Assembly: GCF_001887595.1 (NCBI RefSeq) | Contig: NZ_CP017480.1 | Span: forward strand, 1,798,001 to 1,862,000 | DNA from: Luteibacter rhizovicinus DSM 16549 | GTDB lineage: Bacteria > Pseudomonadota > Gammaproteobacteria > Xanthomonadales > Rhodanobacteraceae | Direction: 5' to 3' | DNA: 64,000 bases | Translations under genes and position numbers: made by a program | Shown: piece after piece, positions 17,218 to 31,222 of the stretch | Layout of the letters: every line of letters begins with the position of its first letter | How positions within the stretch are numbered: position 1 is the first letter of the stretch | The notes under the pieces: generated by a model | The model's input: the letters and a program-made list of their open reading frames with translations, nothing else | The model's database searches: none | Told to the model about the DNA's origin: nothing

Positions 17218-18347
17218 CAGGGGCTACTCGCCACGGTGTCCTCGCCGGCCATCGGGACGACCTTGGCGTGTACCGGGTCACCCGGATGCACGCGCTGGAG
17301 GCCGTTCACCACGATGCGCTCGCCGGGCTTGAGCCCGGAGTCCACGACGCGCAGGCCATCGACCATCAGCCCGGGGAATATCTCGCGGTACTGCGCATGG
17401 TCCTTGTCGTCGAGCACCAGGACGTACTTCTTCGCCTGGTCCGTGGATATCGCCCGGTCGTCTATCAGGATGGCCGGATGCGCCGAGCCGCCGCCGACCG
17501 CGACGCGGGCGAACATGCCGGGCAGCAGTACGCCGTCGGCGTTGTCGAAGGAGGCACGCACGCGAATCGTGCCGGTGGTGCTGTTGAGCTGGTTGTCGAC
17601 CGAGGCGATCTTGCCGGTACGCGAGAAGCCGGTCTCGTTGGCCAGGCCGAGTCGCACGGCGACGTCGTGGTCCGCGGCCTGGCTCAGGTATTTGAGGTAG
17701 GTCTGCTCGTCCACGTCGAAGCCGGCGTAGATCGGATTCATCGAGACGAGGGTGGTCAGTGCCGGTGAACTGAAGCCGGCCGCGACGATATTGCCGACGG
17801 TCTGTTCGGCGCGCGACATGCGTCCATCGACCGGTGCGACGATCTTCGTGTAACCGAGGTTGACCCTGGCGTCCTCGAGCGCGGCCTCGGCCGCCTTCAC
17901 GTCCGCCGTCGCCACCAGGGCGGCGTTCGAACGGTCGTCGAAGTCGCGCCGGGAGATCGCATTGCCCTGCAGGAGTTTCTGCGCGCGCTGGGAATCCGCC
18001 GAGGTGAACTTCTCATGGGCGTGCGCGGCGGCGAGCTGCGCGGCGGCGCGGTCCACGGCGGCGGTGTAGGTGCGCGGGTCGATCAGGAAGAGCGGCTCGC
18101 CCTTCTTCACCATCTGGCCGTCCTTGAAATAGACGGCCATGATCGTGCCGGGCACCTGGGCGCGAATGTCCACGTGATCGATCGCCTGGAGGCGGCCGGA
18201 GTAGCTCTGCCAGTCGGTGACCGGCTTGTAGACCACCGTGGCCACGTCGACCTCGGCCGGGCCCGCCGCGGGCGCGGCACCGTGTCCGCTGCAGGCGGCC
18301 AGGACCAGGGCGCAGGCCACCGGATAGATGAGTCGTATGCCAGGCAT
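17217..18347 (-). CDS. RND efflux periplasmic adaptor (HlyD/AcrA family)
   Basis: 376 residues. A lipoprotein signal peptide ends in VLAAC, followed by the paired lipoyl halves (ITWRA-like VDIRAQVPGTIMAVYFKDGQMVKKGEPLFLID and VNLGYTKIVAPVDGRMSR), a helical hairpin between them, and a beta-barrel domain with TGTIRVRASFDNADGVLLPGMFARV. ATG 18347 has GGGGAAAAGCAAC; the frame is open 60 codons further but without homology. It is the first gene of the adaptor-pump-channel operon. The promoter should lie in the 265 bp before the divergent TIR gene. Confidence 0.95.
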   Translation of the reverse strand: MPGIRLIYPVACALVLAACSGHGAAPAAGPAEVDVATVVYKPVTDWQSYSGRLQAIDHVDIRAQVPGTIMAVYFKDGQMVKKGEPLFLIDPRTYTAAVDRAAAQLAAAHAHEKFTSADSQRAQKLLQGNAISRRDFDDRSNAALVATADVKAAEAALEDARVNLGYTKIVAPVDGRMSRAEQTVGNIVAAGFSSPALTTLVSMNPIYAGFDVDEQTYLKYLSQAADHDVAVRLGLANETGFSRTGKIASVDNQLNSTTGTIRVRASFDNADGVLLPGMFARVAVGGGSAHPAILIDDRAISTDQAKKYVLVLDDKDHAQYREIFPGLMVDGLRVVDSGLKPGERIVVNGLQRVHPGDPVHAKVVPMAGEDTVASSP

Positions 18348-18612
18348 GTTGCTTTTCCCCACTGCGGGCCGTGGCGAGGATGCAACGGCAGCCTGAGTGT
18401 CAGATGCGGACAGGGGGCCGGATAGCAGGGTTTGGTGGGCTTTTGGCGGATGGTGCTGCGTGAAGACCGGGGGCAAAGCGGCCAGGGTCGCCCTGTGCAA
18501 ATAACGTGAAAACGTGCGCTGCGTCACATTTCGGTGCTAGCGTGTGCCTTCGGGCCGCTGGGGCAGGCGGGTCACGACCTGCGGGGTATGACGCGTGTCG
18601 ACCGAAGGTTTC
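18348..18612. other. Divergent intergenic region, efflux operon / TIR gene
   Basis: About 265 bp without a credible gene. It must hold the promoters of the efflux operon (leftward) and of the TIR gene (rightward). I see no convincing -35/-10 pair, palindromic operator or terminator by eye. Confidence 0.5.
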
Positions 18613-20820
18613 ATGGGGCCGGACTACCGGTACCGCGCCTTCATCAGCTACAGCCACCAGGACAAGACCCCGGCGGCTTGGTTACATCGCGCCCTCGAAA
18701 CCTTCGCCATTCCCGCGCGCCTCGTCGGCCAGTCCACGGCGATGGGTGTCGTTCCCCGTCGCCTCTCACCCGTCTTCCGTGACCGCGAGGAGCTGGCCAG
18801 CGCGGGCGACCTCGGTCGCACCGTCAATGTGGCCCTGGCGCAGTCCGCCTGCCTGCTGGTGGTCTGCTCGCCGCAGGCGGCCGCATCGCGTTGGGTCAAC
18901 GAGGAAGTGCTCTCGTACAAGCGCCTCGGTGGCGAGGATCGGATCTTCTGCCTGATCGTCGGCGGCGAGCCGAACGCCACCGCCATGCCGGGGCGCGAAG
19001 CCGAAGAATGCTTCGTGCCGGCCCTGCGCTATCGCTGGGGGGCGGGCGGCGAGCTTGGCAGCGAGCCCATCGAGCCGATTGCCGCAGATATCCGGCAGGG
19101 CAGCGACAGCAAGCTCAACGCCATCGTCAAGCTCGTCGCCGGCATGCTCGGAGTCGGCTTCGATGACCTGAAGCAACGCGAGCTGCATCGGCGGATGCGT
19201 CGCGCCACCGTGCTCGCCGCGGTCGCCCTGTGCGTGATGGCCGTGACCACGACGCTCGCGATCAGCGCCTTCATCTCACGCCACGCGGCGGTGGTCGCGA
19301 GTCATGTGGCCGAGCGTCGCCAGAAGGAGGCGGAGGATCTGGTCAGCTTCATGCTCGGCGACCTCAACGACAAACTGGCCCAGGTGTCGCGCCTGGACAT
19401 CATGGAAGCCGTGGACGACCAGGCCATGAAGTACTTCCAGGCCCAGCCTCTCGACGAGGTGACCGACCGGGCCCTGGAGCAGCGCGCCGCGGCGCTGGAG
19501 AAGATCGGCAGCGTACGCCTCGACCAGGGGCAACTGGCCGCCGCCATGGCGTCGTACCGGGCGGCGCTGGCGGTCGCCACGCGCTTGGCCGATGCCGCGC
19601 CAACGAATATCGATCGGCAACTGGCCCTGGCGGATGTCTGGGCTTACGTCGGCATGACCCAGTGGCGACAGGGCGAGCTCGATGACGCACAGCGAAGCTT
19701 CGCACGTGGTCAAGCGACCTTGCAACGCGCCGCGGTGCACGCGCCGGGCAATACGCAGCTGGCCTTCCAGCGCGCCACGCTCGACAACAACGTCGGTCAT
19801 GTCATGGAAGCGCGCGGCGAACTGGATCAGGCGGCAGCCCAGTACCGTCACATGCTCGCCCAGATGGAGGATCTCGTCATTGGTCAGCCGCATAACGCGG
19901 ACTGGGTCGAGTACCTGGGCTCGGCGCACAACAATCTTGGCAAGCTCGCCCTCATGCGCGGTGACCTCGCGGAAGCCGTTGCCCAGTACAGCGCGGACGA
20001 GCGCATCCAATCGGGCCTCGCGGCGGCGGAGCCCAAAAACATGAGTCGACGCGACAACCTGCTCACCGTCCGCGCCATCCTCGGGCGCACCCAGGCCCTC
20101 ACGGGTGACACCGTTGCCGGCATGGCACGATTGCAGCAAGCGGTCGACATGGCGACGGACCTGGGCACCCTCGACCCCAGCAACACCGACTTCCAGGAAC
20201 ACGCGGCCTTGTATGCCACGCAACTGGCCCGCTTGCGCCGTCTCAGCGGTGATCTGCCGGAAGCGACGGCGCTGATCGCACGGGCGCTTCCGATCTTCGC
20301 CGGACTGGCCAGGCACGATCCCGACAACGCGGCGTGGCAGCGGGAGTATGCGGAAGCCCTGGTGGAGCAGTCGGCGCAAGGGCGCGAGGCCGGTCAGCAG
20401 GACGACGCCCACGAACATGCGACCGCCGCGCTGCAGGCGCTCCGTCCGTTGATGGCCAAGCTGCCCGACGATCGCTCGACACTGCTCGCCGGCATCGTCG
20501 CAAGGCTCTCACTGGCGGCCGTTACGACGGATGCGCAGGTGGCCCGGCAACTGCGCACCGAAGCGCTGGACAGCGTGCAGGCCGCGAAGAGTGGCCAGGG
20601 CGATCCCCGTCTGCAGGCCCTGCGGGTCGAAGCGCTGTTGTCGCTGGCGCGCAAGCCGGACGCCACGCCGATCATCCAACGCCTCTGGGCCAGCGGTTAC
20701 CGCGACGCGGGCCTGCTGCGCGTGCTTCGCCGGGAGGGTATCGACTACCCGGTCAACCAGGCGTTCCAGCACGAACTACTCGTGGCCACCGGCGGCGGGC
20801 CACTGCAAGAGAAGGAGTAA
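18613..20820 (+). CDS. TIR domain - TM - TPR repeat protein
   Basis: About 735 residues. The TIR domain (about 5-145) shows RAFISYSHQDKTPAAWLHRAL, then PVFRDREELASAGDL and SACLLVVCSPQAAASRWVNEEV; the second Glu of W-V-N-E-E is at the place of the NADase catalytic Glu of bacterial TIRs. One membrane helix follows (about 200-222, VLAAVALCVMAVTTTLAISAF), then a long helical part of TPR-like repeats (about 290-640). The TIR would face the cytosol and the TPR part the periplasm. ATG 18613 has GAAGG nearby; GTG 18595 is an alternative. It is followed by a 49-residue gene and a SLOG membrane protein. Confidence 0.85.
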   Translation: MGPDYRYRAFISYSHQDKTPAAWLHRALETFAIPARLVGQSTAMGVVPRRLSPVFRDREELASAGDLGRTVNVALAQSACLLVVCSPQAAASRWVNEEVLSYKRLGGEDRIFCLIVGGEPNATAMPGREAEECFVPALRYRWGAGGELGSEPIEPIAADIRQGSDSKLNAIVKLVAGMLGVGFDDLKQRELHRRMRRATVLAAVALCVMAVTTTLAISAFISRHAAVVASHVAERRQKEAEDLVSFMLGDLNDKLAQVSRLDIMEAVDDQAMKYFQAQPLDEVTDRALEQRAAALEKIGSVRLDQGQLAAAMASYRAALAVATRLADAAPTNIDRQLALADVWAYVGMTQWRQGELDDAQRSFARGQATLQRAAVHAPGNTQLAFQRATLDNNVGHVMEARGELDQAAAQYRHMLAQMEDLVIGQPHNADWVEYLGSAHNNLGKLALMRGDLAEAVAQYSADERIQSGLAAAEPKNMSRRDNLLTVRAILGRTQALTGDTVAGMARLQQAVDMATDLGTLDPSNTDFQEHAALYATQLARLRRLSGDLPEATALIARALPIFAGLARHDPDNAAWQREYAEALVEQSAQGREAGQQDDAHEHATAALQALRPLMAKLPDDRSTLLAGIVARLSLAAVTTDAQVARQLRTEALDSVQAAKSGQGDPRLQALRVEALLSLARKPDATPIIQRLWASGYRDAGLLRVLRREGIDYPVNQAFQHELLVATGGGPLQEKE

Positions 20821-21012: not shown

Positions 21013-21100
21013 GCCCATGCGACAACGCACCGATCCAGGCGGCAGGAACCCGATCGGTTCCCGCGGCGGTGACCGGCAACGGCCGCCGCCTGGAGGGTCT

Positions 21101-22804
21101 GTGCACGTAAAACCCGCGATGACACCGCTGGTGATCGGCGTGACCAGTCATCGTGATATTCCCGCCGATGAAATCGAGCCGATCCGGCAGCGTGTGCGTG
21201 CTTTCTTCACCCAGGTGCGGGCCGAGTTTCCCGGGTTGCCGCTGGTGTTGCTTTCGGCATTGGCCGAGGGTGGCGATCAACTGATCGCCGAGGAGGCGTT
21301 GGCTGTTGGCGCACGCTTGATTGCGCCGCTGCCGTTACCGCGCGCCTTGTACGTCGAGGACTTCTCCACACCCGCCGTTCGCGCCAATTTCGAAGCACTG
21401 TGCAGTCGTGCCGAGGTCGTACTGCTGCCCCGCTTGATGGAGCAGCCACATCACGTGATCGGTTCGCACGGTGCCGCACGAGACCGTCAGTACGCCAAGG
21501 CGGGTGTCTACATCGCCAGTCATTGCCACGTCCTGCTCACGATCTGGGACGGCAATGAAGCCGCGGGGCTGGGCGGCACCGCGCAGATCGTGCATTACCA
21601 CCTCACCGGTGCACCCCCGGGCCTGGTGTTGCGACATCCGCATTCACGACACGTGCTGACGGGGAGCGATGAGAGTCTGCTGTATCACATCGTCTGCTCG
21701 CGCGACGACGACGGGCCGGCGAGTGGTCTCCAACCGCTTCAGGCCGGCTGGCGCAGCGCCGAGAACATGGCGTTCCAGGCAACGCTGCCCGACGACTTCC
21801 GGCTGATGTTCTCGCGCATGGCCGAGTTCAACAGCGAATGCGCCCGGCATGCCGAGACCATCGACGAAGCACCGCGCGAGATGGCCGGCTCGCCGACCGG
21901 CGCAACCGCGGAGATCGACCGACTGTTTCACGCCGCGGACTGGCTCGCTGTGCACTTCCGACGCCGCGTCATCATGGCCATGCGCCTCACCTATACGCTG
22001 GCCGGCCTCATGGGGATCGCCTTCACCTTCTACGCGCACCTGCCGGGCAACAACTTCCTGATCTACCTGTTCCTCGCCATGTTCGGGACGGGCGGGATCG
22101 TGGCCCTGCTCGCGCATCGTCGCGGATGGCACCGCAAATACCTCGATTACCGCGCGCTCGCGGAAGGCTTGCGCATTCAGTCATGCTGGCGCCGCGCCGG
22201 CATCGTCGCCAGTGCGGATCACGAATTCGCGCACGACAACTTCCTGCAAAAGCAGAACATCGAGCTCGGCTGGATCCGCAACGTGATGCGCGCCGCCAGT
22301 CTCTATCCATCGACGCATCCGGAAGCGCCGACCGACGCGGCACTCGCCGAGGTCATCGCCGAGTGGGTCGGCGAGTCCGGTAAGTCGGGCCAGCTGAATT
22401 ATTACGAACGCAAGAGTGCCGAACGCAGCGGCGTGCATCACATCACCGAGACGATCGGTCGCGTGAGTTTGTGGGGCGGTATCACCATCAGCGTGTTCCT
22501 CGCCGTGTTCGCGCTGAAGCTGGGCGAGGAAGCCAAGGTGACCCTGGTCACGATCATGGCCGTGCTGTCGATCATCGCCGCTGTACGCGATGCCTATTCC
22601 TACCGCAAAGCCGATCGCGAACTGATCCGCCAGTACCGCTTCATGCAGCGGATATTCGCCAGCGCGCGGGCGGCACTCGATCGCACGCAAGACCCGGCGC
22701 AACAGCGTTCGATCCTCCTGTCATTGGGGGATGCGGCTCTGACGGAGCATGCGGAGTGGACGTTGATGCAGCGCGAGCGGCAGGTGGAGCACAGCAAGCT
22801 GTAG
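21101..22804 (+). CDS. SLOG domain protein with two 2-TM (SLATT-like) units
   Basis: About 567 residues. The N-terminal Rossmann-like SLOG domain (about 8-170) has LVIGVTSHRDIP, SALAEGGDQLIAEEAL, PLPLPRALYVEDF and the diagnostic HVLLTIWDGNEA...GGTAQIVHY. Two membrane hairpins follow: about 294-313 with 318-338, and 456-476 with 481-500, each flanked by long amphipathic helices (RKYLDYRALAEGLRIQSCW; RKADRELIRQYRFMQR). SLOG domains bind or process nucleotide-derived ligands; SLATT-type 2-TM units are proposed membrane effectors in conflict systems. GTG 21101 has GGAGGG only 3 nt away; ATG 21119 and ATG 21017 are alternatives. Confidence 0.8.
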   Translation: MHVKPAMTPLVIGVTSHRDIPADEIEPIRQRVRAFFTQVRAEFPGLPLVLLSALAEGGDQLIAEEALAVGARLIAPLPLPRALYVEDFSTPAVRANFEALCSRAEVVLLPRLMEQPHHVIGSHGAARDRQYAKAGVYIASHCHVLLTIWDGNEAAGLGGTAQIVHYHLTGAPPGLVLRHPHSRHVLTGSDESLLYHIVCSRDDDGPASGLQPLQAGWRSAENMAFQATLPDDFRLMFSRMAEFNSECARHAETIDEAPREMAGSPTGATAEIDRLFHAADWLAVHFRRRVIMAMRLTYTLAGLMGIAFTFYAHLPGNNFLIYLFLAMFGTGGIVALLAHRRGWHRKYLDYRALAEGLRIQSCWRRAGIVASADHEFAHDNFLQKQNIELGWIRNVMRAASLYPSTHPEAPTDAALAEVIAEWVGESGKSGQLNYYERKSAERSGVHHITETIGRVSLWGGITISVFLAVFALKLGEEAKVTLVTIMAVLSIIAAVRDAYSYRKADRELIRQYRFMQRIFASARAALDRTQDPAQQRSILLSLGDAALTEHAEWTLMQRERQVEHSKL

Positions 22805-22810
22805 CGCGAT

Positions 22811-24586
22811 TCAGGCGGCGCTGAGGGTGTCGTTTTCGGTGTCGGTATCGGCCACGACGCGGTTGCGGCCGGCGCGCTTGGCGCGGTAGAGGGCGGCGTC
22901 TGCCTCGCGGCAGAGGCGTGACAGCTCGAAGCCGCAGCGATCCGTGGACGCAACGCCCACACTGACCGAGAGCGACACCACACGGCCGTCATCTTCGACG
23001 GGAGATCCTTCGATAGCGACGCAAAGTCGCTGTGCTGTCGCCATGGCCTGACTGCTCGTGCATCCTACGAGGAGGATGCCGAACTCCTCGCCACCGAGGC
23101 GAGCGAAGATATGGATCGGTCGGAGCTCATCCTGAAGGACTGCCACTGTGTGCTGAAGCACGATGTCGCCCATGGCGTGGCCATACGTGTCGTTGACCTG
23201 CTTGAAGTGATCGAGATCAATGGAGATAAGGCAGGCACTACCGAGCTTCTTCTCCTGAACCCGCAGGATACGCTCGGCCTCGCTCATGAAGTGTTGATGG
23301 TTGAGGATGCCGGTGAGGCCGTCTAGCGTGGACATTCGCTTGAAGCGGAGCTGAGATCGCTTAACGCGGAAAAGCAGGAGGGCGATCGATGCAAGACTGA
23401 CCAGGAGGAGGGCGATATACAGACGGCCCGTCGAAACGGTGTTGGCATCGAGCGATTGCTGCAAGCGAAGGATGCGATTCTGCTTACTCAGGCTCTCTGT
23501 TGCGAGATTCTGCACCATCTGATGCTGCTGGCTTACTTCATAGGCGAGACTCCTGACACTGATGTCATTGAGGTAGCCCTTGTCCTGCGCAACGAAATGC
23601 TCGTAGTACGAGAGTGCCGCGGCGGTATTTCCCTGCCGCTTCTCCACGCGATAGAGGACATCGTAGGCTTCTTTAAGCCATTCGCTGATGTCGTCGGGTC
23701 CATTCATTGCTAACACGGCCAGAGCAGCTTTCCTGGCTTCTTCGTCGTTGCCCAGCTTTGCATAAGCTTGCGCTCGTTGAAGCTGCGCCGATTGATCGTG
23801 TGGAGAGTAGTGGTTGATGCGTAGGCTGGGACCGATGCGGTCAAGGAGCGCCATGGTCTTCGATGGCTGACCTTCGTCAAGGAAAAGGCTCCCCATCAGG
23901 AGTAGGGCGCTATTAGTGCCGACTGATTCTCGTGCTGCAACGCATGTATCCACGGCCCTCTGAAGATCACGGCTGGACGAGGTCAGGCGCTTTCCGTTGT
24001 ATAGCGCAGCTGCCTTGATCAGGGCCGGATGGCAGTCGGTCTCCCCGGCCGGGATCGAGTTCTCGGCCATGTCCGCGTACTTGATCGCGAGATCCGTTTG
24101 GCCGGCCATGTTGAACATTTGCGAGAGGTTCGAAACGAGCATTGATCGAGCTAGCGAATCCGTCGCCACGGGCAATGATGTCGTTAGCCGATTTGCGAGC
24201 GCGAAGGCCTCTTCGTAGCGCCGATTGATCGCAAGGTTATTCAGGAGAAGAGCCGACGACTTTGCCGCCAATACGGGGTCACCAGAATGGTCGATGATTT
24301 CGTTGAATTGGCTTTCAGACTTGGTGTACTCGCCCTCGAACATGGCCTCCCACGCATCGAGATAGCGCAAATGCCATTGCTCGGAGGTGGTCAGGCTGCT
24401 GGCCTCCTGATGCAGCTGCGCAAGTCGCTGGACGTACTGTGGGTGGTCCTTGGTTCGCAGGCTTTCCGTCTCGTCCAGGAATCCGGCATGGTCGGTCGCG
24501 GAGGCAAACGAGGGCTGCGTGATCGCGCAAAAGGCCAGGGCCGCCATAGCGACCCCCGGCCAAATGCGGCTCAGCAGCCGAGCCAT
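22811..24586 (-). CDS. Diguanylate cyclase with periplasmic TPR sensor
   Basis: 591 residues. A signal-like N-terminus (WPGVAMAALAFCAITQPSFASA) precedes a roughly 350-residue TPR-like helical part, a coiled coil, one membrane helix near 385-405 (LYIALLLVSLASIALLLF) and a GGDEF domain (about 420-580) with SIDLDHFKQVNDTYGHAMGD and the intact active site RLGGEEF. The I-site reads RPIH, with His replacing Asp, so feedback inhibition by cyclic di-GMP is probably lost. The ATG lies 2 nt after the stop of the last borosin-like precursor, implying coupling to that operon. It makes cyclic di-GMP in response to an unknown envelope signal. Confidence 0.9.
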   Translation of the reverse strand: MARLLSRIWPGVAMAALAFCAITQPSFASATDHAGFLDETESLRTKDHPQYVQRLAQLHQEASSLTTSEQWHLRYLDAWEAMFEGEYTKSESQFNEIIDHSGDPVLAAKSSALLLNNLAINRRYEEAFALANRLTTSLPVATDSLARSMLVSNLSQMFNMAGQTDLAIKYADMAENSIPAGETDCHPALIKAAALYNGKRLTSSSRDLQRAVDTCVAARESVGTNSALLLMGSLFLDEGQPSKTMALLDRIGPSLRINHYSPHDQSAQLQRAQAYAKLGNDEEARKAALAVLAMNGPDDISEWLKEAYDVLYRVEKRQGNTAAALSYYEHFVAQDKGYLNDISVRSLAYEVSQQHQMVQNLATESLSKQNRILRLQQSLDANTVSTGRLYIALLLVSLASIALLLFRVKRSQLRFKRMSTLDGLTGILNHQHFMSEAERILRVQEKKLGSACLISIDLDHFKQVNDTYGHAMGDIVLQHTVAVLQDELRPIHIFARLGGEEFGILLVGCTSSQAMATAQRLCVAIEGSPVEDDGRVVSLSVSVGVASTDRCGFELSRLCREADAALYRAKRAGRNRVVADTDTENDTLSAA

Positions 24587-24588
24587 TC

Positions 24589-24894
24589 CTACTTGGTCGA
24601 TTCTTCAGACGGCTGCTTTCCGTCATCGGGCTTCGACGGTTTGTCTGACGAGTCGCCGTCACCTGACTCCATGTCATCCTCGTCGTGCCCAGGTACCTGG
24701 ACAATCTGCGGAAGATCCATGTGCTTGTGTCCCAGCTCTTCGGACAGCAGTGAGCTGTCACCAGACGCTACCGCGGCCGTCAGGCCCGCAGAAGCCTGCG
24801 ACTCCTGGAGCACGTTTGCCAGGTGCTCCGACGAGGCGTGGCGGAGGGAAGCGTCGCGGCCGATGGCCTCGAGTAGTTCGATCGTGTCTGACAT
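24589..24894 (-). CDS. Borosin-type precursor paralogue 12, with acidic C-terminal tail
   Basis: 101 residues, the last and most divergent member of the array. The leader begins MSDTIELLEAIGRDASLRHA, then TAAVASGDSSLLSEELG, followed by the core-like MDLPQIVQVPG. Unlike its siblings it continues for about 35 residues of Asp/Glu/Ser/Lys-rich sequence (DEDDMESGDGDSS...). ATG 24894 has GGGGACC; the frame is open upstream to 25014 without family similarity. The stop lies 2 nt from the diguanylate cyclase start. The tail could be a follower peptide, a solubility segment or a sign that this copy has a different job such as regulation. Confidence 0.8.
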   Translation of the reverse strand: MSDTIELLEAIGRDASLRHASSEHLANVLQESQASAGLTAAVASGDSSLLSEELGHKHMDLPQIVQVPGHDEDDMESGDGDSSDKPSKPDDGKQPSEESTK

Positions 24895-25115
24895 GTGGTC
24901 CCCTGTTTGCGTGGTTGCATCAAAAACGATGACGGCAGCACCGCGGATTTCTTGAGCCGCCCATGGCAACTCAAGGATCCGACCCGAGGCGCCCGGGCGG
25001 CTGGCCGCGCTCACCCGGTGATAGTAGCCTTCCGCGCGGCAGTTCGGACGCCTATCAGTGGCTCCAGCCCCTTCTCAGCGGCGATGGCAAACGGTAGCGC
25101 CGGGGGCGGGGGGGG
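24895..25115. other. Longest gap in the precursor array
   Basis: 221 bp between precursors 11 and 12, against 27-101 bp between most neighbouring intact copies. Around 25050-25095 there is a weak resemblance to the REP arm (GGCTCC...CAGCGGCGATGG), perhaps an eroded copy. I find no open frame with the precursor signature here. A separate promoter for precursor 12 and the cyclase would fit but is not visible by eye. Confidence 0.4.
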
Positions 25116-25334
25116 TTAGCCCGGCGCGAAGAAGGTCTGGATGGCCTGCGGCACGAAATTTGCGGCGGTGCCGAATTCCCGCGCCAGATGGGAGGCATCG
25201 CCGTACTTGACGGCCGAAGCAAGGGCTTCAGAGGCATGGGCATTCGAGAGCACGTCGGCGAGCTTCGCCTTGGATGCGTGACGTAACGAGGCGTCGCGGC
25301 CGATAGCTTCCAGTATTTCGATTGTGTCCAACAT
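25116..25334 (-). CDS. Borosin-type precursor paralogue 11
   Basis: 72 residues. Leader MLDTIEILEAIGRDASLRHA, a more divergent middle (KAKLADVLSNAHASEALASA) with VKYGDASHLAREFG, and the core region NFVPQAIQTFFAPG. It shares the Arg after IG and the His in LRHA with copy 12, so these two form a sub-branch. The ribosome site is AGGAAGTGACAT. The ATG lies only 3 bp downstream of the stop of the decayed copy 10. Confidence 0.88.
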   Translation of the reverse strand: MLDTIEILEAIGRDASLRHASKAKLADVLSNAHASEALASAVKYGDASHLAREFGTAANFVPQAIQTFFAPG

Positions 25335-25337
25335 ATG

Positions 25338-25560
25338 TCACTTCCTATGGTTGTCAGGGGGCGTGGGAGCTTGCAAATGCATCAGTGACACCGAATGCGC
25401 CTCCTGCCTCGCGATCATGGTCGATGATTGAGAGAAGGTCTGGATGGCGTGTGGGAGATACATGCGATTGTTGCCAAGTTCCCGCGCCAGGTACGAAGCG
25501 TCGCCGTGCGCGACGGCCGAACTAAGGGCCTCGGTCGCGCGAGCCTGATTGAGAGCGGCG
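25338..25560 (-). pseudogene. Decayed borosin-type precursor (copy 10), leader lost
   Basis: Read on the minus strand, the sequence gives AALNQARATEALSSAVAHGD followed by ASYLARELGNNRMYLPHAIQ and TFSQSSTMIARQEAH, ending at TGA 25338-25340. This is the second half of a precursor, including a core-like motif with PH in place of PQ, but the first 25 or so leader residues and any start codon are missing. It begins about 12 nt after the stop of copy 9, so a deletion probably joined the two genes. The C-terminus runs about 30 residues longer than in siblings, through what should be the spacer. Confidence 0.8.
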
Positions 25561-25572
25561 GTTCAAATTCGA

Positions 25573-25782
25573 CTACGAATAACTCTGGATGACTTGCGGC
25601 AAGTACATGCGCTTGCTACCTAGTTCCCGCAGCAAGTGGGTGGAATCACCCGATGCGACGGCGGCGGTTAGTGCCTCCGTGGCTTCAGCCTGTTCGAGCG
25701 CGTTCGTGAGTTCAACGGCCGAGGCGTAACGCAGCGAGGCATCGCTACCAATGACTTCGAGCATTTCGATCGTATCCAACAT
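25573..25782 (-). CDS. Borosin-type precursor paralogue 9
   Basis: 69 residues. Leader MLDTIEMLEVIGSDASLRYA, then ALEQAEATEALTAAVASGDS and HLLRELG, and a short core region KRMYLPQVIQSYS. The core is one of the shortest in the array and ends right after the aromatic residue, perhaps because of the deletion that damaged copy 10 next door. AGGAAAGGAAG gives a strong ribosome site. Confidence 0.9.
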   Translation of the reverse strand: MLDTIEMLEVIGSDASLRYASAVELTNALEQAEATEALTAAVASGDSTHLLRELGSKRMYLPQVIQSYS

Positions 25783-25851
25783 GTCGCTTCCTTTCCTGTG
25801 GTTGACGTAGTCATTTCTGGCGGTAGATCGATCACTAACTAGACGCTACAG

Positions 25852-26070
25852 TTAGGGTCGGTCAAAAAAGCTCTGGGAAATCTGCGGCGCATGCATCTGC
25901 GAGCCGCCAAAGTCTTGGCGAAGGCGGGTGATGTCGCCCGACACAACGGCTTCCGTTAGTGCTTCGATTGCCTTGGCGTTCTCGAGTGCGCTCGCAAGAT
26001 CCACCGTCGGCGCATAGCGCAACGAGGCGTCGCTGCCGATAGCTTCAAGCATTTCAAGTGTGTCGAGCAT
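25852..26070 (-). CDS. Borosin-type precursor paralogue 8
   Basis: 72 residues. Leader MLDTLEMLEAIGSDASLRYA, then a variant middle (PTVDLASALENAKAIEALTEA, VVSGDITRLRQDFG) and the core region QMHAPQISQSFFDRP, the only one with His before the P-Q. Its first codons and the spacer before them belong to the segment duplicated 628 bp upstream, so copies 6 and 8 share the same 5' junction while their bodies differ. Confidence 0.9.
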   Translation of the reverse strand: MLDTLEMLEAIGSDASLRYAPTVDLASALENAKAIEALTEAVVSGDITRLRQDFGGSQMHAPQISQSFFDRP

Positions 26071-26159
26071 GTCTCCACTTCCTTCCTGTGATTGTAGGTT
26101 CGCCTGAGAGGCGTGCCGAGTCGTAATTTATGTGACGTGTCTTGGTTTGACGATGCGAT

Positions 26160-26384
26160 TCAATCCGGGTCGGACGCGAGGAACGTCTGGACGGCCTGAG
26201 GCGCATACATCTTCCGTCCGTCGAATTCTTGATCAAGGCGAGAGGTGTCGCCGCTTGCAACAGCAGCCGTGAAGGCCGCGCTTGCCTGCGCTTTCTCAAG
26301 CACGTTGGTGAGCTCCACCGTGGACGCATAGCGCAACGACGCGTCGCTACCGATGGCTTCGAGCATTTCGATTGTGTCGAGCAT
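26160..26384 (-). CDS. Borosin-type precursor paralogue 7 (identical product to 5)
   Basis: 74 residues, the same protein as copy 5: MLDTIEMLEAIGSDASLRYA leader, TRLDQEFDGRK hinge and core region MYAPQAVQTFLASDPD. Two ATGs are in frame; AAGGA abuts the first (26390) and stands at normal distance from the second (26384), which matches the family start. The matching DNA extends into the flanking spacers, showing a recent duplication. Confidence 0.9.
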   Translation of the reverse strand: MLDTIEMLEAIGSDASLRYASTVELTNVLEKAQASAAFTAAVASGDTSRLDQEFDGRKMYAPQAVQTFLASDPD

Positions 26385-26470
26385 GTCCATTCCTTACCGT
26401 GATCGTTGGCGGCGTACAACGGTCCGTGGCTCAAACCGACGTCGCCGGTGTGAGCAAATCAACGAGTGAT

Positions 26471-26698
26471 TCAGTCGATGTCGGACGAGACGAATATCTG
26501 CTGGGTGACCTGGGGTGAGAAATTCTTGATGTTGCCGAACTCCCGGGCCAAGTGGGACGAGTCGCCGGAAGCAACTGCTGCGGTGAGCGCGTCGCTTGCC
26601 CGTCCAGCTTCGAGCACAGTGGTCAGCTCGACGGTCGAGGCATAGCGCAACGACGCATCGCTGCCGATGGCTTCAAGCATTTCAAGTGTGTCGAGCAT
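26471..26698 (-). CDS. Borosin-type precursor paralogue 6
   Basis: 75 residues. The leader is the array consensus, the middle VLEAGRASDALTAAVASGDS resembles copies 2-4, and the core region NFSPQVTQQIFVSSDID is distinctive: Asn-Phe instead of Met-Tyr before the Pro, and an extra Gln after the motif. GGAAGGAAGTGGAG precedes the ATG. It is bracketed by the two near-identical copies of the duplicated segment. Confidence 0.9.
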   Translation of the reverse strand: MLDTLEMLEAIGSDASLRYASTVELTTVLEAGRASDALTAAVASGDSSHLAREFGNIKNFSPQVTQQIFVSSDID

Positions 26699-26787
26699 GT
26701 CTCCACTTCCTTCCTGTGATTGTAGGTTCGCCTGAGAGGCGTGCCGAGTCGTAATTTATGTGACGTGTCTTGGTTTGACGATGCGAT

Positions 26788-27012
26788 TCAATCCGGGTCG
26801 GACGCGAGGAACGTCTGGACGGCCTGAGGCGCATACATCTTCCGTCCGTCGAATTCTTGATCAAGGCGAGAGGTGTCGCCGCTTGCAACAGCAGCCGTGA
26901 AGGCCGCGCTTGCCTGCGCTTTCTCAAGCACGTTGGTGAGCTCCACCGTGGACGCATAGCGCAACGACGCGTCGCTACCGATGGCCTCGAGCATTTCGAT
27001 TGTGTCGAGCAT
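26788..27012 (-). CDS. Borosin-type precursor paralogue 5
   Basis: 74 residues, with core region MYAPQAVQTFLASDPD after the hinge SRLDQEFDGRK. The product equals copy 7 although the genes lie 628 bp apart with a different precursor (6) between them. The leader-encoding DNA differs from copy 7 by only a base or so, far less than between most siblings. The spacer before its ATG belongs to the 313-bp tandem unit. Confidence 0.9.
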   Translation of the reverse strand: MLDTIEMLEAIGSDASLRYASTVELTNVLEKAQASAAFTAAVASGDTSRLDQEFDGRKMYAPQAVQTFLASDPD

Positions 27013-27100
27013 GTCCTTCCTTCCGGCGAATGTGGATGTGGAAGTGCGGTGGGCCGACTAACCTGGATCACCGCACCTTGGTGCCCATCAATCAAACGAA

Positions 27101-27325
27101 TCAGCTAAGTTCAGAAGAACAAAAGCTCTGCGTGGCCTGGGGCTGGTACATCTTCCTGTAACCAAACTCCTCGTCCAGGCGGGAGGCATCGCCGGATGCA
27201 ACAGCCGCGGTGAACGCTTCGCTGGCCTTGCCGCGTTCAAGCACGGTCGTGAGCTCTACCGTCGACGCATAGCGCAACGATGCGTCGCTGCCGATAGCCT
27301 CAAGCATTTCAAGTGTGTCGAGCAT
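27101..27325 (-). CDS. Borosin-type precursor paralogue 4
   Basis: 74 residues. Consensus leader, then VLERGKASEAFTAAVASGDA and core region MYQPQATQSFCSSELS. Copies 3 and 4 are the only ones with a Cys in the core region. It lies in the left unit of a 313-bp tandem duplication and differs from copy 3 by one residue (Ala versus Val before SGD). Confidence 0.9.
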   Translation of the reverse strand: MLDTLEMLEAIGSDASLRYASTVELTTVLERGKASEAFTAAVASGDASRLDEEFGYRKMYQPQATQSFCSSELS

Positions 27326-27413
27326 GTCCTTCCTTCCGGCGAATGTGGATGTGGAAGTGCGGTGGGCCGACTAACCTGGATCACCGCACCTTGGTGCCCA
27401 TCAATCAAACGAA

Positions 27414-27638
27414 TCAGCTAAGTTCAGAAGAACAAAAGCTCTGCGTGGCCTGGGGCTGGTACATCTTCCTGTAACCAAACTCCTCGTCCAGGCGGGAGGC
27501 ATCGCCGGATACAACAGCCGCGGTGAACGCTTCGCTGGCCTTGCCGCGTTCAAGCACGGTCGTGAGCTCTACCGTCGACGCATAGCGCAACGATGCGTCG
27601 CTGCCGATAGCCTCGAGCATTTCAAGTGTGTCGAGCAT
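27414..27638 (-). CDS. Borosin-type precursor paralogue 3
   Basis: 74 residues, a near twin of copy 4 with the same Cys-containing core region MYQPQATQSFCSSELS and VVSGDA in place of VASGDA. AGGAAGGAAGGAC precedes the ATG. The spacer upstream differs from that of copy 4, so the right edge of the tandem duplication falls at this start codon. Confidence 0.9.
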   Translation of the reverse strand: MLDTLEMLEAIGSDASLRYASTVELTTVLERGKASEAFTAAVVSGDASRLDEEFGYRKMYQPQATQSFCSSELS

Positions 27639-27726
27639 GTCCTTCCTTCCTGTGATGGTGCATATGAAAATGCGGTGACCCTACTAACCTGGATCACAGC
27701 ACCTAGGTGTCCATCGATCAAACGAA

Positions 27727-27951
27727 TCAGCCCAGTTCGGACGAAAGGAACGTCTGCGAAGCCTGAGGCTGGTACATCTTCCTGTGACCAAATTCCTCGT
27801 CCAGGCGGGTGGCATCGCCTGATGCAACAGCCGCGGTGAACGCTTCGCTCGCCTTGCCGCGTTCAAGCACGGTGGTAAGCTCCGCCGTCGAGGCATAGCG
27901 CAACGACGCGTCGCTGCCGATGGCTTCCAGCATTTCAAGTGTGTCCAGCAT
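27727..27951 (-). CDS. Borosin-type precursor paralogue 2
   Basis: 74 residues. Leader MLDTLEMLEAIGSDASLRYA, body STAELTTVLERGKASEAFTA, and core region MYQPQASQTFLSSELG. It is close to copies 3 and 4 in leader and body but swaps Thr for Ser and Cys for Leu in the core, a leader-constant, core-variable pattern. ACGGGGAATACG supplies the ribosome site. Confidence 0.9.
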   Translation of the reverse strand: MLDTLEMLEAIGSDASLRYASTAELTTVLERGKASEAFTAAVASGDATRLDEEFGHRKMYQPQASQTFLSSELG

Positions 27952-27975
27952 CGTATTCCCCGTGAAGTGCGGCAG

Positions 27976-28179
27976 TTAGACTTGTGAAACCTGCGGCAGA
28001 AACATTCGCTTGACGCCCAGCTCCGCGAAAAGCTCAGAGCTATCGCCCGTTACGGCAGCGGACGTCAGGGCAGGTGAGGCGTGAAGCTGTTCCAGAGCCG
28101 CACTCAGCGCGTCCGTGTGAGCGTGGCGCAGCGATGCATCGCTGCCAATCGTTTCCAGTATGTCAATCGTGTCCAGCAT
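27976..28179 (-). CDS. Borosin-type precursor paralogue 1
   Basis: 67 residues, the copy nearest the methyltransferase gene (48 nt after its stop). Leader MLDTIDILETIGSDASLRHA, then LTSAAVTGDSSELFAELGVK and core region RMFLPQVSQV, which ends straight after the P-Q-V-S-Q motif and is the shortest in the array. As I recall, the Shewanella precursor SonA has the same layout: a small helical leader domain with LGQDAQL, a TGD segment, and a short C-terminal core. AAGGGGAAGTAC precedes the ATG. Confidence 0.9.
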   Translation of the reverse strand: MLDTIDILETIGSDASLRHAHTDALSAALEQLHASPALTSAAVTGDSSELFAELGVKRMFLPQVSQV

Positions 28180-28227
28180 GTACTTCCCCTTACTGTGGTT
28201 GATGACGCCATGGTTTGAGCGGTTAGT

Positions 28228-29064
28228 TCAGGCGGTCGCCGCTTCCTGCTCCAGCTTGTCCAACGCAGCAAGCCGCTCACGAATTTCATGGTTTGGCTTG
28301 AGCGCGGCGGCCGGCGGGATGACCACGGTCTCTTCGGTCGGCACGTCGACGAAGGGAAGGTCGCGCAGGGCAATGCGGCGGATGCGCGGCTTCTGGATCG
28401 GCAGGGTCACCGCGCGGTAGATGATGATCTCGTGGTCGAGTGGGTAGTCCTTGGCCAGCACATCGACCAGCACCTGACGGTATGCGCCGCTGGTGGTGAA
28501 GCGGGCGAGAGAGCGATCGCCGACCAGGCCGACTTGCCACAGGACGAGGTAGCTGCTGGGATCGATGCGGCGCTCATAGAAAAGAATCTGGCCGGCTTCG
28601 TAGTGCTGGCAGCCCACGGTGCCCGGGTCGATGCCCAGATCGGCGTAGAGGCAGTCCTCGGCGGAGACGCCCGGCTCCATGTGGGCCTGGAAGCCTTCGG
28701 CGCGGGCGACCTCGATGACCTTGTGCGGCGACCAGGCGAAGATGCCCGGGTGGCCGTAGAAGACGCCGCAGACGCGCTTGCCGGCGCGGACTTCGACCAT
28801 CATCAGTTCGACCCATTCTTCATAGGTCTTCCGGCGCGACTTACCTTCCTTGTAATAAGGCTGCAGGCTGCGCACGTCGGAGTTCATGCGCTGGAGCCAC
28901 TGCTCGACGATGTTGTCCGAGAGGCCAGCGAAGATCACGTCAGCCTGTTCGATATGGCTGCGGGACAGCGGGGTGAGGTGGGAACCCAGGGTCATGCCCA
29001 TGCCAACGATGGCGATGCTGCCCTGGCGCGTATCTTTCGGCGGTGCTACGAGAGGTGTGTTCAT
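28228..29064 (-). CDS. Split-borosin-type peptide backbone alpha-N-methyltransferase
   Basis: 278-residue SAM-dependent enzyme of the tetrapyrrole-methylase fold. It resembles SonM and the catalytic part of fungal OphMA: IAIVGMGMTLGSHLTPLSR (SAM loop), YYKEGKSRRKTYEEWV with Y71/R78/Y81, VFYGHPGIFAWSPH with Y103, EPGVSAEDCLYADLGIDPG, and CQHYEAGQILFY. These Tyr/Arg residues are candidates for the active site by analogy with OphMA and SonM. No core peptide is fused to the C-terminus, so substrates must be supplied in trans, and the precursor array starts 48 nt downstream. ATG 29064 begins the conserved part; the frame is open upstream without homology. It is the likely first gene of the operon. 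Confidence 0.9.
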   Translation of the reverse strand: MNTPLVAPPKDTRQGSIAIVGMGMTLGSHLTPLSRSHIEQADVIFAGLSDNIVEQWLQRMNSDVRSLQPYYKEGKSRRKTYEEWVELMMVEVRAGKRVCGVFYGHPGIFAWSPHKVIEVARAEGFQAHMEPGVSAEDCLYADLGIDPGTVGCQHYEAGQILFYERRIDPSSYLVLWQVGLVGDRSLARFTTSGAYRQVLVDVLAKDYPLDHEIIIYRAVTLPIQKPRIRRIALRDLPFVDVPTEETVVIPPAAALKPNHEIRERLAALDKLEQEAATA

Positions 29065-29228
29065 CGCGTGATAGTAGGCGAAGTTCCGCGACGGAAGCAC
29101 GCTCGGCCGCACAACTTTTTCAACGTTTCGACGGCTCGCTTGTCTTGCCGAAATTGCATAGTCCGAGTGCGCTTTATGTGGCGCCTTTAGAGCTTGCGGG
29201 CTAGCATCCATGCCGGTTACGCATAAAT

Positions 29229-29500
29229 GCCGGGGCAGCCGCCGACGGAAGCTGGACAGGAATTTCTTGCGCGCATGGACCCGATTCTTGCGGCTATCGA
29301 GGACGCCGAGAACAGCGTGCGGGAGACGGCGAGCTGCGTGGCGTGCTCCGGGTCGGCATGCCGTCCCCAGGACATGGTCCGCGAGGCGGTGGACGTCGGC
29401 ATCCGCGTCGGGCCCCTGCCGGACTTGAGCGGCACGGCCCGGCTGATCGGCCAGATGCATCGCGTGGTTGCCGGCATCGGATACCTAGCCGGCGCCCGCG
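29229..29500 (+). pseudogene. Decayed LysR regulator remnant
   Basis: The + strand encodes pieces of a LysR protein in two frames: TEAGQEFLARMDPILAAIED and AENSVRET in one frame, ELRGVLRVGMPSP in the next, then VDVGIRVGPLPDLSGTARLIG back in the first. The DNA-binding N-terminus and most of the effector domain are missing. It ends against the stop of the NmrA-like gene in tail-to-tail orientation. An internal deletion and frameshifts make function very unlikely. Confidence 0.75.
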
Positions 29501-30265
29501 CTACCACCTCACGCGGGAATACTCCGACTGCTCCAGCCACTCCTGAAACCCCCGCGTGCCAAGCGTTGCGTCCGCACGGGGCAACAGGACGTCCTCGTCC
29601 AGAATGGCGCCGAAGTACGGTGCGTCGGCGTCGAGGATGACGTCGCAAGGCGCTTCGATGTCGAGCAGGAAGCGCTGGACGATGTCGAACAGGCGCTCGC
29701 GCGTGGGCCCGGCGACCTGGATCGAGCCGTTGATCGGCATCGCCACCGCCGCCTCGGCGATCACCGCCGCGACATCGTCGGAAGCGACGGGCTGGATGAA
29801 GGCCGACGACAGCCGCACCGTCTGGTCGCGCACGGCCGAGCTGACAATGTCGACGAGGAACTCATAGAACTGCGTCGCGTGCACCACCGTAAACGGGATG
29901 CCCGAGTGTCGGATGAGGACTTCCTGCAAGGCCTTGCCCCGGAGATAGTGGCTGTCGTCGAGCAGGCCGGTGCCGACGACCGAAAGCGAAACGTGGTGGC
30001 GCACGCCGGCTTCGGCTTCGGCCGCGAGGAGGTGTTCGCTCGCGGCCTTGAAGAACTCAAACGCCGCGATGTCGTCGAACGAAGGCGAATTGCTGACGTC
30101 GACCACTACATCGATGCCGGCCAGTGCCTGCCTCAGCCCCTTGCCAGTCGTGACATCGACGCCCGTCGACCGTGAGGCGGCGGTGGTCTCGTGCCCCGCT
30201 GCCCGGAGTCGCGCCACGACGTTCCGGCCGACGAGGCCGTAGCCACCAATGACCAGGATGTTCAT
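29501..30265 (-). CDS. NAD(P)-binding NmrA-like atypical SDR
   Basis: 254 residues. The N-terminal fingerprint MNILVIGGYGLVGRNVVARL and SLSVVGTGL, with no YxxxK pair in the usual place, mark the atypical SDR/NmrA group (NAD(P)H-sensing or quinone-reductase-like). ATG 30265 starts the Rossmann fold; the 41 codons of open frame upstream are ignored. Such genes usually accompany a LysR or TetR regulator, and the neighbouring LysR remnant may be what is left of it. Confidence 0.88.
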   Translation of the reverse strand: MNILVIGGYGLVGRNVVARLRAAGHETTAASRSTGVDVTTGKGLRQALAGIDVVVDVSNSPSFDDIAAFEFFKAASEHLLAAEAEAGVRHHVSLSVVGTGLLDDSHYLRGKALQEVLIRHSGIPFTVVHATQFYEFLVDIVSSAVRDQTVRLSSAFIQPVASDDVAAVIAEAAVAMPINGSIQVAGPTRERLFDIVQRFLLDIEAPCDVILDADAPYFGAILDEDVLLPRADATLGTRGFQEWLEQSEYSRVRW

Positions 30266-30397
30266 ACCTACCTCGCGTTCGCATCGGGCGGATGCCGAAG
30301 AAGCCGGCATGCGGCTTGATGCTACGGATGCGGGGAGGGAGGCAGTAGGTCCGACGACGGCACGGGAATGGTTCCATCGCGGCAACAATCGCCGCGA

Positions 30398-31222
30398 CTA
30401 CCTCGCCAGGAGCCGCCGTGACAGCTCGCGGAATGCCTCACCGACGACACCCGGATTCTCGATCCACGGGAAGTGGCCGGCATCGGGTACTTCGCAGGTC
30501 AGGACGTTCGGCGTGCCGTAGCTTGGATCATCCCAGCCGCGCTGGCTGACGATGCGATCGTTCGCGCCCCAGAGGCGCAGCACGGGTATATCGGTGGGCC
30601 ACCAGCGGGCCTTATACGTGTGATCGAAGTTCACATCCGACCACTCGACCGCTTCGCGGTTGTAAGGCATGCGAGCGAGGAGTGCACGACCGGTCTCGAT
30701 CGCCCACGGCTGGAAATTCCACTCCGTCGATTCCAGCACCAGCGTGGTCAGGTTGGCCACGCTGTTGTCGCGCCCGTAGGCAACCAGCGCTTCCTCGAAT
30801 CGTGGCAGCGGGTGATCCTGCGTCATCTGAACGTACTCGGCGTGCCACGCACAATCGGGCGCGGTGTCGAGAAGCACGAGGCCGACGATATGCTCGCGAA
30901 CCTCCGGCGTGGCGAGCAGATACATGCCGCCAGTGGAATGGCCGGCAAACACGACGTTCGGCAATTCCTGCGCGGCCTCCACCAATACGTGTGGCCACAG
31001 CCGGAACGGGTCGTCGTGCTGGCGACCGGTGTTCGAGCCATCGCCCGGCAGATCCACGAGCCAGATCGTCCCCGGCACGTCCATCGCGTCGGCCAGTTCC
31101 TGCAGGCTTTCCGACCCGATGCCCGGACCGCCGGGGAGCAGCAGCCAGTTGAGGTCGCCCGGTCGGGACGAGTGCAGGCGCATGCGGACGCCGGAGGTAG
31201 TGAATCGCGTTTCCAAGGTCAT
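30398..31222 (-). CDS. Alpha/beta hydrolase
   Basis: 274 residues. Nucleophile elbow GHSTGG, oxyanion region LLLPGGPGIGSES, acid in WGANDRIV and His in PDAGHFPWIENP complete the catalytic triad. The group resembles proline iminopeptidase- or haloalkane-dehalogenase-like esterases; the substrate is unknown. ATG 31222 is preceded by AGAGGAGGGT. No signal peptide, so cytosolic. Confidence 0.9.
   Translation of the reverse strand: MTLETRFTTSGVRMRLHSSRPGDLNWLLLPGGPGIGSESLQELADAMDVPGTIWLVDLPGDGSNTGRQHDDPFRLWPHVLVEAAQELPNVVFAGHSTGGMYLLATPEVREHIVGLVLLDTAPDCAWHAEYVQMTQDHPLPRFEEALVAYGRDNSVANLTTLVLESTEWNFQPWAIETGRALLARMPYNREAVEWSDVNFDHTYKARWWPTDIPVLRLWGANDRIVSQRGWDDPSYGTPNVLTCEVPDAGHFPWIENPGVVGEAFRELSRRLLAR

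What the first reader, a model, noticed from the sequence alone, without database searches (positions are those of the whole stretch)
24589..29064. Split-borosin RiPP locus with eleven precursors in tandem
The enzyme at 28228-29064 has the motif set of SonM/OphMA-type backbone N-methyltransferases but no fused core, and the first precursor begins 48 nt downstream on the same strand. Eleven intact 67-101 residue paralogues follow, each with a near-invariant leader domain and a short variable C-terminus. Known bacterial split borosins that I can recall have one or a few precursors, so an array of this size with one methyltransferase is unusual. No dedicated protease or transporter is nearby.
Basis: partly seen in the sequence, partly recalled or inferred. 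Interest (0 to 1): 0.95.

Follow-up and report, generated by a model that had tools for sequence, protein, structure and literature searches.

The report
Borosin peptide array beside c-di-GMP receptor
A soil bacterium carries an enzyme thought to methylate peptide backbones, eleven intact tandem genes for its likely peptide substrates, and, directly behind them, a membrane sensor enzyme that makes the signal molecule c-di-GMP; because enzyme, peptide and sensor stay together in many relatives, these peptides may be signals rather than stand-alone natural products.

Summary
A SonM-type backbone N-methyltransferase (28228-29064, minus) precedes eleven intact paralogous precursors and one truncated copy. 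Sequence and predicted fold make them split borosins: SonM is the best solved relative (E 1.7e-73), its catalytic Tyr/Arg/Tyr are present, and SonA heads the precursor profile's PDB matches. Methylation is not shown.

This gene accompanies the MTase in 78 of 83 related loci (each with a precursor) and in 55 of 60 stretches taken mostly outside the family; in 15 of the 60, cyclase and MTase are one protein. In two further families 20 of 20 stretches hold a TPR receptor beside the MTase, 12 of them histidine kinases; six of eight class-level loci showed none. Precursor cores covary with the TPR sensor, not with GGDEF or MTase.

Best reading: these precursors are partners or ligands of TPR receptors, here feeding c-di-GMP signalling; the array is a Luteibacter-clade expansion of a tailless precursor class. 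A GGDEF-bearing borosin type is named in a published legend, so part may be known.

The parts
28228..29064 (-). split-borosin backbone N-methyltransferase, 278 aa
   Evidence: SonM 7ltc E 1.7e-73; PF00590 1.7e-18; Y71/R77/Y81 match SonM Y58/R67/Y71
27976..28179 (-). precursor W1, 67 aa, class I (orthologue of the first precursor of Luteibacter OK325)
   Evidence: clade W1/D6/K1 support 99/98
27727..27951 (-). precursor W2, 74 aa, array class
   Evidence: AlphaFold model with five helices
27414..27638 (-). precursor W3, 74 aa, array class
   Evidence: 2 nt from W4
27101..27325 (-). precursor W4, 74 aa, array class
26788..27012 (-). precursor W5, 74 aa, array class
   Evidence: 1 nt from W7
26471..26698 (-). 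precursor W6, 75 aa, array class
26160..26384 (-). precursor W7, 74 aa, array class, protein identical to W5
25852..26070 (-). precursor W8, 72 aa, array class
25573..25782 (-). precursor W9, 69 aa, array class
25338..25562 (-). truncated twelfth precursor copy, 5' part and start codon lost
25116..25334 (-). precursor W10, 72 aa, array class
24589..24894 (-). precursor W11, 101 aa, acidic C-terminal tail, class paired with the cyclase
   Evidence: clade W11/D7/K2 support 96/91
22811..24586 (-). TPR-TM-GGDEF diguanylate cyclase, 591 aa, 2 nt between the W11 stop and its ATG
   Evidence: PF00990 1.2e-38 and TPR; hydrophobic segments at 4-22 and 390-408, GGEEF at 498-502; of 28 matches in the genome one other shares its TPR part

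Best explanation
The locus is a split-borosin peptide-signalling module. The MTase binds the five-helix leader of each precursor and N-methylates backbone amides in the last 10-20 residues (inferred from SonM/SonA). The methylated C-terminal part, free or still on its precursor, is recognised by the TPR sensor domain of the receptor encoded beside it: here an inner-membrane TPR-TM-GGDEF protein whose TPR part is predicted periplasmic. Recognition changes c-di-GMP synthesis (inferred). W11, with its acidic tail, is the standing partner of the cyclase; W1-W10 lack the tail and are extra peptides made by the same enzyme, multiplied by recent tandem duplication to vary or raise the signal. Shown here: homology, gene order, pairing, fusions, covariation. 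Not shown: methylation, cleavage, passage to the periplasm, binding, and any effect on c-di-GMP.
For: Identity: SonM E 1.7e-73; a profile of 94 precursors finds SonA chains as the top 7 of 177635 PDB sequences, E 0.0018-0.0049, best hit residues 1-61 to 1-61; five helices, then an end of low confidence. Pairing: 78 of 83 loci carry the TPR-GGDEF gene on the MTase strand, with 84 precursor-cyclase pairs and a median gap of 11 nt to the first possible start; 55 of 60 further stretches, 15 of them one TPR-GGDEF-MTase protein, of single origin on the tree. Of 28 GGDEF matches in this genome two share the TPR sensor, and both follow an acidic-tailed precursor. Over 233 family genomes: both genes 157, MTase only 5 (all five proved to be fusions with a diverged sensor), TPR only 1, neither 70. 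Elsewhere: 20 of 20 stretches from two families have a TPR receptor, 12 histidine kinases and 8 GGDEF (Pfam on six of the 12 kinases confirms all six). Covariation on 73 triads: core vs TPR partial r 0.36 (0 of 500 permutations), vs GGDEF -0.03, vs MTase 0.00; it holds against rate-matched columns, and the sensor window nearest the precursor gene is the weakest (0.15), so plain linkage does not explain it.
Against: No export route is known for a leader-bearing precursor without a signal peptide, while the TPR part is predicted periplasmic (hydropathy only). Complete loci without a TPR receptor exist: L012, L062, L092 and L158, L159, L160, L164, L200; six of eight class-level loci show none, one of which (L205) also lacks the catalytic residues. 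Of 20 stretches drawn around TPR-GGDEF matches, most chosen because no MTase row lay near, 10 have no MTase and 6 of those 10 no precursor. The acidic tail has exceptions: among cyclase-adjacent precursors L079 has 1 and L071 4 acidic residues after residue 66, and L167, L168, L189 and L202 lack a clear acidic tail beside a separate cyclase. Single linkage on any shared flank gene joins 72 of 75 loci, so surroundings are not wholly independent. Distance-matrix correlation is indirect, and the leader also covaries with MTase (0.17, 4 of 500).
Confidence: 0.45

Rival explanations
1. Cytoplasmic complex: the uncleaved precursor, alone or bound to the MTase dimer, touches the cytoplasmic side of the receptor and tunes output-domain dimerisation, perhaps reporting SAM or peptide state. 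No peptide leaves the cell.
For: Single TPR-GGDEF-MTase proteins place the MTase on the cytoplasmic side. Acidic tails mark precursors next to a separate cyclase and are absent from the SonA-like precursors recognised in fused and kinase loci (exceptions L071, L079, L167, L168, L189, L202). Tight gene coupling, median gap 11 nt. A BBD-like segment is read in frame with a response-regulator receiver in L228. In RcbAB a TPR-GGDEF cyclase is de-repressed by a partner from the same operon (PMC12282931, abstract).
Against: The core covaries with the predicted periplasmic TPR part, not with GGDEF or MTase.
Confidence: 0.27
2. Ordinary RiPP product: the peptides are cleaved and secreted for an outside job (antagonism, metal binding), and the receptor only senses the environment and controls production or biofilm.
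For: RiPP precursors commonly act outside the producer (general knowledge); the tailless precursors of L012 lie near a TonB-dependent receptor gene (Pfam 4.9e-31), with homologues in L089 and L092; an RND-type efflux operon lies 4.3 kb beyond the cyclase (12545-18527).
Against: No peptidase or exporter gene adjoins the array; in 83% of locus pairs no flank gene is shared while the receptor is; receptor-core covariation.
Confidence: 0.18
3. The array itself is neutral: recombination between short repeats amplifies one precursor without a gain in function.
For: Near-identical copies with identical spacers and one truncated copy; the OK325 locus has two precursors.
Against: Ten short copies stay open with pooled leader pN/pS 0.29; the array class is shared with dw_328 and diverged there.
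Confidence: 0.25

Closest known systems
SonM/SonA type IV split borosin of Shewanella oneidensis (PMC8429565; passages and one section read)
   Same: separate MTase and about 70-residue precursor; catalytic Tyr/Arg/Tyr; five-helix borosin-binding domain; C-terminal core
   Different: eleven intact precursors in tandem; acidic-tailed precursor next to a TPR-GGDEF receptor; product and methylation unproven here
GGDEF-bearing borosin architecture named in the Figure 1 legend of PMC11395268 (first part of the text, passages and legend read; figure not held)
   Same: a GGDEF domain is drawn among borosin architectures; it may be the TPR-GGDEF-MTase fusion seen here in 15 stretches
   Different: here the cyclase is a separate gene; array, acidic tail, kinase pairing and covariation are not described in what I read
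RcbB TPR-GGDEF cyclase with partner RcbA, Vibrio vulnificus (PMC12282931; abstract and passages read)
   Same: TPR-GGDEF cyclase regulated by a partner encoded in the same operon
   Different: the partner is a TPR protein, not a borosin precursor
fungal OphMA-type fused borosins
   Same: homologous MTase (E about 1e-51 to 1e-48)
   Different: core fused to the MTase (PMC11285071, passages)

Membership tests
split borosin | MTase of the borosin branch of TP_methylase | tested here: met
   SonM and OphMA families best in PDB; NCBIfam corrin and YabN families below cut-off
split borosin | catalytic Tyr/Arg/Tyr | tested here: met
   window Y71/R77/Y81; 86 of 86 MTases of the first set
split borosin | MTase without fused core | tested here: met
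   278 aa, homology to SonM up to residue 265
split borosin | separate precursor with a five-helix borosin-binding domain | tested here: met
   SonA best PDB matches, five helices predicted, hhalign 93% to fused-locus precursors which match SonA at 1.7e-11; a structural comparison could not be run
split borosin | backbone N-methylation of the core | not testable with these tools
   needs mass spectrometry
cobalamin, sirohaem or YabN-type TP methylase | score above family cut-off | tested here: not met
   best 42.5 bits against a cut-off of 525
diguanylate cyclase | GGDEF domain with GG(D/E)EF | tested here: met
   PF00990 1.2e-38, GGEEF
diguanylate cyclase | RxxD inhibitory site (optional feature) | tested here: not met
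   RPIH in the window, HACD in the genome's other such cyclase; RxxD in 91 of 91 homologues examined
peptide-signal/receptor system | receptor-like gene encoded with the peptide | tested here: met
peptide-signal/receptor system | peptide binds the receptor and changes output | not testable with these tools
   covariation only

The most novel reading that the evidence does not exclude
Bacterial split borosins of this branch are signal peptides: an N-methylated peptide is the ligand of a family of TPR-type membrane receptors with interchangeable outputs (GGDEF or hybrid histidine kinase), and this Luteibacter has evolved a multi-peptide array for one receptor.
Probability: 0.4. Interest if true: 0.95.

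Novelty: new variant of a known kind. Interest (0 to 1): 0.8.

Why it matters
The 2021 paper that described split borosins says none of the pathways was yet tied to a final natural product (PMC8429565, passage). A receptor encoded beside the precursor, fused in one lineage to the MTase, replaced by a histidine kinase in others and covarying with the core, makes 'what are borosins for' directly testable: measure c-di-GMP and test TPR binding. It would also propose a ligand class for TPR-GGDEF cyclases, of which PMC12282931 says the interacting targets of two Vibrio examples were not identified (passage). The array gives nine natural core variants for one enzyme.

Tried and rejected
Cobalamin, sirohaem or YabN enzyme: rejected. 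Riboswitch (for instance c-di-GMP) in 22500-30500: no Rfam match at E up to 1. One promoter or terminator per copy: 4 weak promoter-like sites (1.2 expected) and 3 terminator-like (4.3 expected), not used. Pfam and NCBIfam: no convincing family for the five of eleven precursors tried (one again in 67, 80). Relatives of W11: 302, of which 120 listed; those with a name are hypothetical or uncharacterised, one says PAS domain. A first flank test kept only 39 loci because of overlapping long frames; it was replaced. Acidic tail as a mere ribosome-binding side effect: judged unlikely by inspection, since the Glu/Asp stretch begins about 70-90 nt before the cyclase start. Neutral linkage as the cause of covariation: made less likely by the window scan. 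Structure of the TPR-GGDEF protein and structural search with the precursor model: could not be run.

Literature: borosin searches; 'borosin' with 'diguanylate cyclase' 0 papers; with 'histidine kinase' 1 paper, each word once, listing only. Of only 20 of 162 papers were listed. TPR-cyclase searches. The main split-borosin survey (Imani 2022) and another paper asked for by a recalled DOI are not held, so what they say on GGDEF, kinases or arrays is unknown to me.

Full report
What is there. On the minus strand a 278-aa TP_methylase (28228-29064) is followed by eleven intact paralogous small genes and one truncated copy, then after 2 nt by a 591-aa TPR-TM-GGDEF gene (22811-24586). The window lies in a single-contig genome of 4,765,486 bases; the nearest MTases of named genomes are from Luteibacter sp. 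dw_328 (95%) and OK325 (90%).

Enzyme. SonM is the best solved relative (E 1.7e-73), fungal OphMA-type enzymes next (1e-51 to 1e-48), the first corrin enzyme 7e-4. Residues Y71, R77 and Y81 align with SonM Y58, R67 and Y71, whose mutation lowers activity in PMC8429565 (passages). The three are present in 86 of 86 MTase domains of the first set, 60 of 64 of the second (exceptions: the second domains of L158 and L159, one copy in L152, a fragment in L151), 25 of 25 in L203, L204 and L211-L230, and 7 of 8 in L203-L210.

Precursors. A profile of 94 precursors finds SonA chains as its seven best PDB matches, E 0.0018-0.0049, the best co-linear over residues 1-61. The model of W2 (mean pLDDT 78.6) has helices 4-13, 15-18, 22-31, 36-44 and 47-54 and no structure after that, with low confidence at the end. 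PMC8429565 describes SonA's leader as a five-helix bundle (passage). Precursors of the fused loci match SonA at 1.7e-11 and the array family by profile at 93%.

History of the array. Three classes are supported: class I (W1, D6, K1; 99/98), class II with acidic tail next to the cyclase (W11, D7, K2; 96/91), and the array class (W2-W10 and D1-D5; 97/91), absent from OK325 (W from the window, D from dw_328, K from OK325). The last duplications are recent: W3/W4 and W5/W7 differ by 2 and 1 nt with identical spacers. Leader pN/pS 0.29, C-terminal part 0.56 (pS near saturation).

Own genome. Two more loci: 3.27 Mb (L012; MTase, three precursors, no cyclase) and 4.54 Mb (L013; MTase, three precursors, TPR-GGDEF). 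Of 28 matches to the window's cyclase (E up to 0.001) only two share its TPR part: its own and that of L013, both after an acidic-tailed precursor.

Pairing within and beyond the family. First set: 80 named loci (best 80 of 148) plus three own loci. 78 of 83 have the TPR-GGDEF gene on the MTase strand, each with a precursor; of the five others, L078 and L090 end 312 and 1 bases after the MTase, and L012, L062 and L092 truly lack it. 84 precursor-cyclase pairs have gaps of -35 to 52 nt, median 11, measured to the first possible start codon. Cyclase-adjacent precursors average 97.5 aa with 10.2 Asp/Glu after residue 66 (82 of 84 have five or more); the other 39 average 78.4 aa with 2.7 (31 of 39 have fewer than five). 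Second set: of 398 genomes of the order 204 have the MTase; I took 60 stretches from 58 of the 80 genomes (five from one genus of the family, 55 from other families of the order): 55 of 60 have the TPR-GGDEF part, and in 15 it is one protein with the MTase (Pfam on one example). Exceptions: L158, L159, L160, L164, L200. A precursor was recognised in 10 of the 15 fused stretches; those read have no acidic tail. The fused MTases form one clade of 16 rows, support 0.975; kinase pairing needs three changes (FastTree, midpoint root).

Genome co-occurrence. In 233 family genomes the MTase is found in 162 and the TPR sensor in 158: both 157, MTase only 5, sensor only 1 (G081, 86% complete), neither 70; Fisher p 3e-52, which ignores kinship. 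All five MTase-only genomes proved to carry the fused protein with a diverged sensor (L144, L150, L151, L152, L155). Of 2775 pairs among 75 triad loci, 476 share any flank homologue within 7 kb and 85 share both sides; single linkage joins 72 of 75 loci by any shared gene, and gives 36 clusters when both sides must be shared (some flanks are cut by contig ends).

Further away. Among 369 class-level genomes 10 have the MTase, 8 of them outside the order. Two of the 8 (L203, L204) have SonA-like precursors with TPR hybrid histidine kinases, L203 also a TPR-GGDEF gene; the other six show neither precursor nor TPR receptor with these models, ten of their neighbours scanned by Pfam are unrelated, and one (L205) lacks the catalytic residues. 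In the families of those two genomes 60 of 147 and 4 of 4 genomes have the MTase; I took 17 and 3 stretches, best scores first and then a selection: 20 of 20 have a TPR receptor, 12 kinases (L211-L219, L228-L230) and 8 GGDEF (L220-L227; in L221 on the opposite strand); precursors were recognised in 18 of 20. Pfam confirms TPR and kinase domains in six of six of the 12 tried. Of 12 kinases checked by hydropathy (L203, L204 and ten more) nine have a TM at residues 387-432. L228 reads a BBD-like segment in frame with a response-regulator receiver.

Against the pairing. Of 20 stretches chosen around TPR-GGDEF matches, mostly because no MTase row lay near, ten have no MTase in the stretch: four of these keep a precursor (L123, L124, L125, L128), six have the cyclase alone.

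Topology. 85 of 91 cyclases have an N-terminal hydrophobic segment and 90 of 91 a TM 60-140 residues before GGDEF (hydropathy only). Two Cys in the TPR part are invariant in 70 sequences, as a disulphide outside the cytoplasm would allow. So sensing is probably periplasmic and output cytoplasmic; how a precursor peptide would reach the periplasm is open.

Covariation. On 73 triads the distance matrix of the core (residues 57-68) correlates with that of the TPR part after removing MTase and GGDEF (0.36, 0 of 500 permutations), not with GGDEF (-0.03) or MTase (0.00); the tail 0.20 with TPR; the leader 0.44 with TPR, 0.17 with MTase. Controls with fast-evolving MTase and GGDEF columns of equal divergence leave 0.37 for the core and about 0 the other way (for the leader 0.40 and 0.23); TPR subsets of 160 columns give 0.32; the strongest window for the core is residues 119-178 (0.41), the weakest 1-58 (0.15), the end nearest the precursor gene. 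This is indirect and rests on one alignment of short cores.

Judgement. Borosin identity is as firm as sequence allows. A functional link between this borosin branch and TPR receptors is well supported (I put it near 0.75); that the methylated peptide is the ligand is the best single account (0.45), a cytoplasmic complex the main rival (0.27). The array is the largest of the set examined and a clade-specific expansion of precursors without the acidic tail.

Known or new. The legend of Figure 1 in PMC11395268 explains 'GGDEF' among borosin architectures, so a GGDEF-bearing type is in print, perhaps the fused one. PMC11285071 says types V-X were defined by two surveys (passages); the one I asked for is not held. 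I found no held paper with 'borosin' and 'diguanylate cyclase'.

Noticed in passing
22811-24586 (-), residues 489-492 of the cyclase: The window's cyclase reads RPIH where 91 of 91 homologues examined have the RxxD product-inhibition site; the genome's other such cyclase (L013) reads HACD. The genome with the largest array may have lost feedback inhibition.
   Followed up: partly
L228:5643-6182 (-): A SonA-like leader segment is in frame with a response-regulator receiver domain (Response_reg 6.7e-26), next to a borosin MTase and TPR kinase.
   Followed up: partly
L158:3829-5463 (-), L159:2749-4383 (-): Two MTase domains in one 545-aa protein; the second lacks the catalytic Arg and the second Tyr.
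   Followed up: no
L012:9004-12192 (+), homologues in L089 and L092: A TonB-dependent receptor gene (Pfam 4.9e-31) lies downstream of borosin loci in three Luteibacter genomes; L012 and L092 have no cyclase.
   Followed up: partly
window 18595-20820 (+) and 21017-22804 (+): A TIR-domain protein with TPR (TIR_2 5e-10) next to a DUF4231-like membrane protein (below cut-off), possibly a defence pair; no PADLOC match.
   Followed up: partly
L225:2085-3682 (+): Three tandem precursors before a TPR-GGDEF gene in another family, so small arrays arose elsewhere too.
   Followed up: no
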